Source: Alphaproteobacteria bacterium (GTDB lineage Bacteria; Pseudomonadota; Alphaproteobacteria; UBA9219; RGZA01). From it: a stretch of DNA of 42,831 nt. The stretch is taken from assembly GCA_021732145.1 (NCBI GenBank), contig JAKFVN010000036.1, forward strand, positions 1 through 42,831, given 5' to 3'. Position numbers and translations under genes: made by a program. Shown piece by piece: positions 35,865 to 37,815 of the stretch; the first letter of the stretch is position 1, and each line of letters begins with the position of its first letter. The notes beneath the pieces are model-generated. The model did not search any database, was not told the DNA's origin, and worked only from the letters and a program-made list of their open reading frames with translations.

Positions 35865-35999
35865 TTAAGCGGAAAGACGCTTACGACCTTGCGCGCGGCG
35901 ACGCGAAATAACGCGGCGGCCATTTTTGGTAGCCATGCGGGCGCGGAAGCCGTGGCGACGCTTGCGAACCAAGCGGCTAGGTTGATATGTGCGTTTCAT
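35865..35999 (-). CDS. rpmH: 50S ribosomal protein L34
   Basis: A 44-residue, arginine-rich ribosomal protein translated from ATG 35999 to TAA 35865-35867. The sequence [18 protein letters not shown] and the remainder ([13 protein letters not shown], ending KRLSA) is a full-length L34. AGGAG lies 7 nt before the ATG, and a strong promoter is placed about 70 bp upstream. It heads the rpmH-rnpA-yidD-yidC-engB-argB-HAD-dapD run. Confidence 0.98.
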
Positions 36000-36096: not shown

Positions 36097-36136
36097 CCAC
36101 TTATGTTGCTCTTGCCAGGCTTCATGGTAAAGCCTT

Positions 36137-36160
36137 GCCGGATAAGGCCTTTTGCGGCAT
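36137..36160. repeat. REP-like segment
   Basis: GCCGGATAAGGCC, four T, then GCGGCAT resembles half of an enterobacterial REP unit. It contains the perfect palindrome AAGGCCTT (36144-36151). Only one incomplete unit is present, so similarity may be chance. Confidence 0.25.
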
Positions 36161-36163
36161 AAC

Positions 36164-36239
36164 CCAGTGTCCCGATTTTGAAGTTCGCGTTGCTTTACGG
36201 CAATGCGTTAACGAACTTCAAAATCGATAAGGACACTGG
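36164..36239. repeat. 76-nt hairpin element H1
   Basis: Left arm: nine bases CCAGTGTCC (36164-36172) directly followed by fifteen, CGATTTTGAAGTTCG (36173-36187). Right arm: CGAACTTCAAAATCG (36212-36226), an unpaired ATAA (36227-36230), then GGACACTGG (36231-36239). All 24 pairs are perfect. The 24-nt loop has a small inner stem TTGC/GCAA. It has the same architecture as H2 but the opposite orientation. Confidence 0.9.
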
Positions 36240-36253
36240 TAAATTTAAGTAAT

Positions 36254-36329
36254 TAGTGTGGTTTAAATTGAAAAGTCCGCTAAACAACGCTATCCCAAAG
36301 CTTCTGCGGACTTTTCAATTACCACACTA
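36254..36329. repeat. 76-nt hairpin element H2
   Basis: Left arm: TAGTGTGGT (36254-36262), an unpaired TTA (36263-36265), then AATTGAAAAGTCCGC (36266-36280). Right arm: GCGGACTTTTCAATT (36306-36320) directly followed by ACCACACTA (36321-36329). All 24 pairs are perfect around a 25-nt loop. Its total length equals that of H1, from which it is separated by 14 AT-rich bases. Read in the same orientation as reversed H1, it shares AGTGT in the outer arm and AACGC..CC..AAAGC in the loop. Confidence 0.9.
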
Positions 36330-36365
36330 TGCTTAAAATCACACCAATTTCTTAAGAGGCTTCAT

Positions 36366-36554
36366 ATGTTACAGGGATTAGTTAACTGGCTGCTCGGCAT
36401 AGCGCTGTCCATCGTTGGCTTGGCCGGGCTATTTCTTGCTGCCAAGGGTGCAACCAATGACGCTTATGTATTCGGCCTCATTCTGTTTGGCTTGTCATTA
36501 TTGTGCCTTGCTGTCTTGGTACGCAATGTGCTCGATAAAGCTGAACACCACTAA
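36366..36554 (+). CDS. Small two-helix membrane protein
   Basis: A 62-residue protein with two hydrophobic helices (about 5-27 and 33-53) joined by a short polar turn (KGATNDAY), ending in a charged tail VRNVLDKAEHH. Start ATG 36366 has AGAGG 7 nt upstream. I do not recognise a named family. It follows the twin hairpins directly and precedes pgk by 31 bp, so it may share the pgk transcript and carry the hairpin H2 in its leader. Confidence 0.7.
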   Translation: MLQGLVNWLLGIALSIVGLAGLFLAAKGATNDAYVFGLILFGLSLLCLAVLVRNVLDKAEHH

Positions 36555-36585
36555 TTTTTTAATTCAAAGATGATAAGGATAAGTG

Positions 36586-37815
36586 ATGAGCGAGGAATTT
36601 CTCACTCTGGATGATGTTGACGTATCCAATAAAATTGTGCTGCTTCGCGGCGATTTAAACGTGCCGGTGCAAAACGGTGTGGTGGGCGACATGACCCGCT
36701 TGCAGCGTTTGCTGAAAACCATTCAGGAATTGAAATCCAAAAAAGCGAAAATCGTCGTGCTATCCCATTTTGGCCGCCCGAAAGGCAAGGTCGATGCATC
36801 GATGTCCCTGGAACAAATCGTGCCAGTGCTCTCGGGCCTGCTGAACGAACGCGTTGATTTCTGCAATGAATCAATAGGTGAAAAAGCCAAGGCAGCGATT
36901 GCCAGATTGAAAAGCGGCGGTGTACTTGTTCTGGAAAATACCCGCTTTCATAAAGGCGAAGAAGAAAACGATGCGGTCTTAAGCAAAGCATTCGCATCAC
37001 TCGGCGATGTATTTGTGAATGATGCGTTTTCGGTCACGCACCGCGCGCATTCATCCACCGAAGGCATTGCGCATCTGCTGCCATCCTGCTGCGGGCGCGA
37101 TATGCAAAATGAATTGGAAGCCTTGGCAAAGGCGCTTGATAAACCTGTTCGCCCTGTTGTGGCGATTGTGGGTGGCTCGAAAGTTTCGACCAAGCTTGCA
37201 TTGCTTAGCAACCTCACCGCAAAGGTGAACGTGTTGGTGCTTGGCGGCGGCATGGCGAATACGTTTATTGCTGCCCAAGGCATGGCTGTTGGTAAATCAT
37301 TGTATGAATCTGATATGCTGGATACCGCACGTAAAATTATGGCGGAGAGCAAAAACAAAGGTTGCACCATTTTATTGCCAAGCGATGTGGTGGTTGCCGG
37401 AACCTTTGCGGCCAATGTTCCAACTGAAACCGTAACGGTTGAACAAATTCCGGCTGATAAAATGGCGCTTGATGTCGGGCCAAAGACCGTTGCCGCCATT
37501 CAGGCCGCATTGAATGAAGCCAAAACAATCGTGTGGAATGGCCCGCTGGGCGCATTTGAAATTCCGCCATTTGAAAAAGCAACGATGGCGGTTGCCAAAA
37601 CCGTGGCCAGTCTTACATCAACGGGCGCAGTGCTGTCGGTTGCTGGCGGTGGTGACACCGTCGCTGCCGTAAATATGGCACAAGTCGGCAATAGCCTTTC
37701 CTATGTCTCAACGGCAGGCGGTGCATTCCTTGAATGGCTCGAAGGATGCGCATTGCCCGGTGTTGAAGTCTTACGCAAACAACGCAAACCAGAGGCACGC
37801 GCTGCAAACGTTTAG
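36586..37815 (+). CDS. pgk: Phosphoglycerate kinase
   Basis: Pgk transfers phosphate between 1,3-bisphosphoglycerate and ADP in glycolysis and gluconeogenesis. ATG 36586 is chosen (AAGGA 6-7 nt upstream; the GTG at 36583 is less likely), giving 409 residues. Seen are VLLRGDLNVPVQNG, LSHFGRPKG, LVLENTRFHKGEE, NDAFSVTHRAHSS, VGGSKVSTKL, VLGGGMANTF, VWNGPLGAFE and the nucleotide-site GGGDTVAA. gapA and fbaA, frequent neighbours, are not here; the SDR gene follows after 20 bp. Confidence 0.97.
   Translation: MSEEFLTLDDVDVSNKIVLLRGDLNVPVQNGVVGDMTRLQRLLKTIQELKSKKAKIVVLSHFGRPKGKVDASMSLEQIVPVLSGLLNERVDFCNESIGEKAKAAIARLKSGGVLVLENTRFHKGEEENDAVLSKAFASLGDVFVNDAFSVTHRAHSSTEGIAHLLPSCCGRDMQNELEALAKALDKPVRPVVAIVGGSKVSTKLALLSNLTAKVNVLVLGGGMANTFIAAQGMAVGKSLYESDMLDTARKIMAESKNKGCTILLPSDVVVAGTFAANVPTETVTVEQIPADKMALDVGPKTVAAIQAALNEAKTIVWNGPLGAFEIPPFEKATMAVAKTVASLTSTGAVLSVAGGGDTVAAVNMAQVGNSLSYVSTAGGAFLEWLEGCALPGVEVLRKQRKPEARAANV

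What the first reader, a model, noticed from the sequence alone, without database searches (positions are those of the whole stretch)
36164..36329. Twin 76-nt hairpin elements with matching architecture in opposite orientation
Two long inverted repeats lie 14 bp apart. Each is exactly 76 nt, with a 9-bp outer stem, a 15-bp inner stem, a 24- or 25-nt loop and a 3-4 nt bulge between the stems (ATAA in the right arm of H1, TTA in the left arm of H2). All 48 stem pairs are perfect, although the stem sequences of the two differ. When H1 is reverse-complemented the bulge falls on the same side as in H2, and the loops share AACGC and AAAGC in the same order. This looks like two diverged copies of one unit whose folding has been kept by compensatory change, as expected for a structured RNA or a ssDNA-recognised mobile or recombination site. 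I know of no named element with this build.
Basis: partly seen in the sequence, partly recalled or inferred. Interest (0 to 1): 0.8.

Follow-up and report, generated by a model that had tools for sequence, protein, structure and literature searches.

The report
Twin-hairpin miniature jumping element
The two hairpins are the two halves of one ~167-bp miniature transposable element, found in many Alphaproteobacteria, that inserts at CTAG and has ends like IS630-family insertion sequences; it is a decayed, probably immobile copy here, but its paired-palindrome build and its methylation-type sites are unusual.

Summary
H1 (36164-36239) and H2 (36254-36329) are not an RNA gene or two chance palindromes. 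They are the halves of one mobile unit of about 163-169 bp: H1, a 12-14 nt spacer, then H2 in inverted orientation. I collected 159 distinct units, all from Alphaproteobacteria where the record names a class; some genomes hold dozens.

The unit moves as a pair. A congener has the rpmH-pgk junction without it, and seven other insertions have clean empty sites in congeners, usually a single CTAG. Conservation stops exactly at the terminal CTAGs. Units also sit inside or end-to-end with other units through one shared CTAG. Complete IS630-family insertion sequences in related genomes have plain 24-bp ends matching the hairpin arms (20/24). A second unit subfamily matches the ends of a different IS630 subgroup.

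So this is a non-autonomous IS630-type element (MITE) in which each end is doubled into a near-perfect palindrome. Stem covariation is strong, but mismatches show no G.U bias, which argues against a folded RNA. The H1 arm usually carries GANTC, the CcrM methylation site. The closest described relatives are the two-armed alphaproteobacterial CIR repeats, whose sequences I could not compare.

The parts
36164..36330 (+). whole twin-hairpin mobile unit (H1 + spacer + H2), tetramer ends CCAG ... CTAT (consensus CTAG ... CTAG)
   Evidence: absent from the homologous junction of congener G002
36164..36239 (+). hairpin H1 (76 nt)
   Evidence: model R1 77.8 bits
36164..36187 (+). H1 outer (left) arm: terminal inverted-repeat-like sequence CCAGTGTCCCGATTTTGAAGTTCG, 18/24 identical to an IS630 end in Bradyrhizobium pachyrhizi (L317)
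36174..36178 (+). position of GANTC (CcrM site) in most H1 copies; here GATTT, so the site is lost in this copy
   Evidence: sequence; other copies
36227..36230 (+). ATAA bulge in H1 right arm
36240..36253 (+). spacer between the hairpins (14 nt; 12-14 nt in nearly all units)
36254..36329 (-). hairpin H2 (76 nt), homologous to H1 in inverted orientation
   Evidence: model R1 56.5 bits
36263..36265 (+). TTA bulge in H2 left arm
36306..36329 (-). H2 outer (right) arm: the other terminal inverted-repeat-like sequence

Best explanation
The two hairpins are one non-autonomous DNA transposon (MITE) of about 167 bp. Its outer ends are IS630-type terminal inverted repeats, and it inserts at CTAG (core TA). 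SHOWN: the H1-spacer-H2 unit inserts and amplifies as a whole; the target is CTAG or a near variant; complete IS630-family elements in related genomes have closely similar ends, and one such element sits in the CTAG at a unit's end. INFERRED: an IS630-family transposase supplied in trans binds the two outer arms and moves the unit as double-stranded DNA; each hairpin is a palindromic doubling of one transposon end (outer arm plus an inverted inner copy). INFERRED: the arms of each hairpin stay matched at the DNA level, through repeated use as binding sites, cruciform formation or arm-to-arm correction, rather than through an RNA fold. The window copy is a decayed, isolated insertion between rpmH and a small ORF upstream of pgk, in a genome where no IS630 (DDE_3) transposase was found.
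For: Whole unit elsewhere in congener G002 (82% and 74%) while G002's rpmH-pgk junction lacks it. 202 H1-H2 neighbours in one fixed order and orientation, spacer 12-14 nt in 150 of 154 units measured. Flanks are near background outside the terminal tetramers. Seven further empty sites in congeners: CTAG in four, and CTAA, CCAG, TTAT in one each. Tandem and nested units share a single CTAG at nine junctions. Copies within one genome 88-97% alike in G399. Complete IS630-family elements end in CTAGTGTCCTGAACCAGAAGTTCG-like sequence, 19-20/24 to the H1 arm consensus; the L253 transposase scores E 4.6e-77 for NCBIfam IS630. A second unit subfamily (L173, L186) matches the ends of IS630 element L258 at 17-18/24. 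In L307 an IS630 element sits in the CTAG at the outer end of an H2 hairpin.
Against: No IS with exactly the consensus arm sequence was found; the best match is 20/24. Most unit-bearing genomes tested lack a close relative of the L253 transposase, and 8 of 14 had no DDE_3 match at all, so the evidence for the mobiliser is indirect. If only the outer arms were needed, the inner arms should drift, yet they track the outer arms; this needs an extra reason. The window copy has lost perfect CTAG ends.
Confidence: 0.87

Rival explanations
1. A structured RNA (sRNA, riboswitch or RNase III target) whose two hairpins are kept by compensatory change.
For: Strong folding and strong covariation: 156 double-change cells, 19 of 24 pairs, 0/500 shuffles.
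Against: No Rfam family. G.T and A.C mismatches are equally common in the stems (32:26 in H1, 46:47 in H2), so there is no sign that either strand is kept as RNA with wobble tolerated. Units move to unrelated sites, and the window's homologous junction exists without it. Loops are poorly conserved.
Confidence: 0.05
2. An ssDNA-recognised hairpin element: REP/REPIN moved by a Y1 (RAYT/IS200-IS605) transposase, or an integron attC-like site.
For: Inverted pair of hairpins with a one-sided bulge and a conserved terminal tetramer resembles REPIN dimers (PMC3116915, PMC3733652).
Against: Eight of 14 unit-bearing genomes have no Y1 transposase match, and no hairpin lies near the ten Y1 matches found. 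Hairpins are 76 nt with CTAG at all four arm ends, not 20-40 nt with GTAG/CGTC at one end. Insertion leaves TA/CTAG at both ends. The ends match IS630 ends.
Confidence: 0.04
3. The unit is one of the described CIR/RIME-type intergenic repeats of Alphaproteobacteria and therefore already known, with only its mobiliser newly identified.
For: PMC2229807 describes CIRs as alphaproteobacterial intergenic repeats with two long inverted repeats forming two arms joined by a linker and with conserved GANTC; GANTC is enriched here too.
Against: CIRs are ~110 bp with GANTC at a terminal loop; these units are 163-169 bp with GANTC in the H1 stem and often the spacer. No CIR sequence was available for comparison.
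Confidence: 0.2

Closest known systems
IS630-derived MITEs (RUP of Streptococcus pneumoniae with IS630-Spn1; compare Correia/NEMIS of Neisseria)
   Same: Short, non-autonomous, high copy; for RUP, IS630-like terminal repeats, intergenic position and TA-containing target (PMC2229807).
   Different: RUP and NEMIS have one terminal inverted repeat pair. Here each end is a complete 76-nt palindrome, so there are four end-like arms, and the target is mostly CTAG.
CIR (CcrM-associated intergenic repeats) of Caulobacter, Brucella and relatives (Chen and Shapiro 2003, read only through PMC2229807)
   Same: Alphaproteobacterial, intergenic, two long inverted repeats forming two arms with a linker, GANTC sites.
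   Different: ~110 bp, GANTC exposed at a terminal loop, mobility mechanism not known; here 163-169 bp, GANTC in the H1 stem, IS630 ends, CTAG target.
REPIN / GTAG- and CGTC-tagged REP dimers (PMC3116915, PMC3733652)
   Same: Two inverted hairpins form one mobile unit; tetranucleotide at the ends.
   Different: 20-40 bp hairpins, GTAG/CGTC tag, Y1 transposases; none of these fit.
Br-REP1/Br-REP2 of Bradyrhizobium (PMC5082802)
   Same: Repeated palindromes in Bradyrhizobium intergenic regions; Br-REP1 lies in an element with three palindromes.
   Different: Published consensus CCGGAATCTCGAGATTCCGG is not the arm sequence seen here; no mobiliser was proposed in the passages read.

Membership tests
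IS630-family MITE | terminal sequences shared with an autonomous IS630-family element | tested here: met
   19-20/24 identity of the H1 arm consensus to the ends of IS630-family elements L306 and L317; second subfamily matches L258 ends 17-18/24
IS630-family MITE | TA (CTAG) target, present at both ends after insertion | tested here: met
   seven empty sites, TA kept in six and CCAG in one; shared CTAG in tandem and nested copies
IS630-family MITE | short and without a transposase gene of its own | tested here: met
   163-169 bp in nearly all units; ORFs in the stretches inspected between neighbouring units are not transposases by inspection
IS630-family MITE | mobilised in trans by an IS630 transposase | not testable with these tools
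   needs a transposition assay
CIR repeats | two long inverted repeats joined by a linker, alphaproteobacterial and intergenic | tested here: met
   definition from PMC2229807
CIR repeats | length about 110 bp | tested here: not met
   length distribution 160-171 bp apart from two outliers
CIR repeats | GANTC at a terminal loop | tested here: not met
   GANTC lies in the H1 stem (36/45 unbiased units) or spacer (18/45)
CIR repeats | sequence similarity to CIR1-CIR4 | not testable with these tools
   paper not held
REPIN | REP hairpin with GTAG or CGTC tag and a cognate RAYT gene | tested here: not met
   CTAG ends; no Y1 transposase match in 8 of 14 unit-bearing genomes and no hairpin beside the Y1 genes found
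Rfam RNA family | match at gathering score | tested here: not met
   no match in the window or nine unit-bearing loci
integron attC site | integrase-linked cassette array with R/L boxes | not tested
   no integrase search made; the arm sequence and CTAG insertion do not suggest it

The most novel reading that the evidence does not exclude
A class of IS630 elements and their twin-palindrome MITEs in Alphaproteobacteria couples transposition to chromosome replication through CcrM methylation of GANTC in the transposon ends, the counterpart of Dam/GATC control in IS10. This would also explain why CcrM-associated two-armed repeats (CIRs) exist.
Probability: 0.22. Interest if true: 0.75.

Novelty: new variant of a known kind. 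Interest (0 to 1): 0.52.

Why it matters
It gives a widespread, apparently unnamed repeat of Alphaproteobacteria a likely mobiliser class, a target site and exact boundaries. It shows a MITE design in which both ends are doubled into hairpins that stay matched, which raises a clear question: what keeps an inner arm identical to an outer arm? The GANTC sites in the hairpin stem, and at fixed positions in the ends of related IS630 elements, make it directly testable whether CcrM methylation controls transposition, and could explain the 2003 observation that two-armed alphaproteobacterial repeats are associated with CcrM sites.

Tried and rejected
Structured RNA: Rfam gave nothing, and the wobble test showed no RNA bias. 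Y1/RAYT mobilisation: no hairpin within the Y1 loci. Phage carriage: no phage record matched; two short IMG/VR contigs carried a unit or part of one, plausibly host DNA. Compound transposon (genes between two units): ORFs between neighbouring units look like ordinary host genes or spurious frames. Promoter or terminator role at this locus: counts no higher than in shuffles. Plasmids as a source of empty sites: the eight Roseibium/Labrenzia plasmids that matched appear to carry it at one site (beside the same SDR gene), so they gave no empty site. Exact-sequence literature search was uninformative. Caution kept: the genome-wide pattern scan required matching H1 inner arms, so H1 stem perfection and GANTC counts from that set are biased; an unbiased set of 45 units was used for GANTC, and the covariation count uses only hairpins found by sequence similarity. 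That covariation control does not remove relatedness among copies.

Full report
OBSERVATION. Both hairpins exist exactly as described: H1 36164-36239 and H2 36254-36329, each 76 nt, 9 + 15 perfect pairs, bulges ATAA (right arm of H1) and TTA (left arm of H2), 14 bp apart. Each folds about eight to ten standard deviations better than shuffles on either strand. H1 and reverse-complemented H2 align. A third, degenerate H1 lies elsewhere in the same genome (G000:C22:20961-21034).

IT IS ONE MOBILE UNIT. Searching relatives with the whole stretch found two further whole pairs in a congener (G002:C5 at 82%, G002:C11 at 74%), while the same congener's rpmH-pgk junction aligns across the site with the pair missing. 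In a sample of 385 genomes of the class, 13 have a match to a copy of the pair at E <= 0.001; at most two candidates per genome were scored, so this is a lower bound. A covariance model of the hairpin (R1) found up to 143 matches in one genome (some hairpins match on both strands). A wider sample of 299 genomes again matched only in this class (how many of those lay outside the class is not shown).

From these I extracted 159 distinct units. H1 and H2 occur as neighbours 202 times in one order and orientation; the spacer is 12-14 nt in 150 of 154 measured. Conservation ends at the outer tetramers: CTAG at 137/159 left ends and 113/159 right ends, with base composition near background outside them. 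Copies in one genome can be 88-97% alike, so amplification is recent in some lineages.

TARGET SITE. I joined the flanks of 20 units around a single CTAG and searched congeners. Seven sites are continuous there, that is, empty: four with CTAG, and one each with CTAA, CCAG and TTAT at the exact insertion point. Units also insert into units: nine junctions share one CTAG, either end-to-end (for example L139, L150 twice, L151) or inside another unit at the inner end of a hairpin (L084, L130, L166, L186). A CTAG target duplicated as TA or as CTAG gives the same product; TA is the established IS630 duplication (own knowledge).

MOBILISER. Among IS630 (DDE_3, Pfam PF13358) loci of unit-bearing genomes, one transposase gene ends against CTAGTGTCCTGAACCGGAAGTTCG. 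Relatives of that transposase gave complete elements of about 1.14-1.21 kb with plain 24-bp inverted ends: L306 (CTAGTGTCCTGAGCCAGAAATTCG / CTAGTGTCCTGAATCAGAGATTCG), L317 in B. pachyrhizi (CTAGTGTCCTGAACCAGAAGTTCG / CTAGTGTCCTGAGTCACAAGTTCG; its reading frame appears broken) and others. These two match the H1 arm consensus CTAGTGTCCCGATTCCGAAGTTCG at 19-20 of 24 positions; 16 of 20 beyond CTAG has a chance probability of about 4e-7 per comparison. The transposases of L253 and L258 belong to NCBIfam IS630 (E 4.6e-77 and 7.1e-79). Ends of other IS630 elements (L235, L259, L316) match at only 10-12 of 24. A second unit subfamily (L173, L186) instead matches the L258 ends at 17-18 of 24, so unit ends and IS ends vary together. 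In L307 a complete IS630 element sits in the CTAG at the outer end of an H2 hairpin. The autonomous elements do not carry the long hairpins (by inspection of the end sequences). The unit is therefore best read as a MITE in which each end has been doubled into a palindrome. That the transposase actually moves the unit is inference.

WHY THE STEMS STAY PAIRED. Across 47 hairpins found by similarity, 95.6% of cells pair, 19 of 24 pairs show double changes, and no shuffle reaches this; sliding the partner by one column destroys it. Copies are related, so this is not a formal probability. In the larger set, G.T and A.C mismatches are equally frequent (32:26 and 46:47, leaving out the ambiguous pair beside the bulge). 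RNA selection on a fixed strand should favour G.U. Pairing is thus more likely kept at DNA level, by repeated use of both arms as sites, by cruciforms, or by arm-to-arm correction; I cannot separate these. The outer and inner tetramers of H1 also often change together (CTGG/CCAG, GCAG/CTGC, CCAG/CTGG in the window).

GANTC. In the 45 units not selected by pattern, GANTC (the CcrM methylation site) lies in the H1 arm in 36, in the H2 arm in 1 and in the spacer in 18; chance for the arm position is about 1%. The middle base of that motif is its most variable one (T or A). Related IS630 elements mostly carry GANTC at the same position (11-15 from the end) of one end, with all four middle bases seen, and further sites near position 24 and 49 of the other end in several (some orientations in that table follow an antisense frame and were corrected by hand; L253, L254, L307 and L316 lack it at position 11 in the ends seen). 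The CcrM C-terminal RAMA domain is present in 16 of 21 genomes tested, including this one; among controls it rings only in Caulobacter. Methylation control of transposition, as known for Dam and IS10 (own knowledge), is a hypothesis. The window copy has lost its H1 GANTC (GATTT).

KNOWN RELATIVES. Delihas 2007 (PMC2229807) describes CIRs: ~110-bp alphaproteobacterial intergenic repeats with two inverted-repeat arms, a linker and GANTC, of unknown mobility. Architecture and phylogeny agree; length and GANTC position do not; sequence could not be compared. RUP of pneumococcus is the classical IS630 MITE. REPINs are similar in plan but use other sequences and enzymes.

THE WINDOW COPY. It lies between rpmH (35865-35999, minus strand) and a 62-aa ORF (36366-36554) upstream of pgk (36583-37815) (gene names by inspection). 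The start of the ORF is preserved in the empty congener. No DDE_3 transposase was found in this genome and the promoter/terminator scan is at background. It is most likely a decayed insertion without a function of its own.

Noticed in passing
window 36100-36162: Intergenic block beside rpmH conserved in two congeners (82-83% identity), including an imperfect palindrome TGCCGGATAAGGCCTTTTGCGGCA at 36136-36159; no explanation found.
   Followed up: partly
window 36366-36554: 62-aa ORF with hydrophobic stretches between the unit and pgk; its start is conserved in congener G002; not annotated further.
   Followed up: no
L173:3530-3820, L186:6239-6430: Second subfamily of twin units (CTAGTGGTCC ends, core GACATTTG); in L186 it is inserted in the internal CTAG of a first-subfamily unit.
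   Followed up: partly
L255-L261, L306, L312, L318: IS630-family elements with GANTC at fixed positions of their ends; possible CcrM-controlled transposition.
   Followed up: partly
L211:10640-10930, L212:6070-6360: Units whose H2 has lost most of its inner stem and loop but keeps the outer stem, as expected from hairpin-promoted deletion.
   Followed up: no
L136:6711-6783 (G154:C12:590711-590783): An H1 hairpin almost symmetrical on both strands, pattern found on both strands; extreme of arm matching.
   Followed up: no
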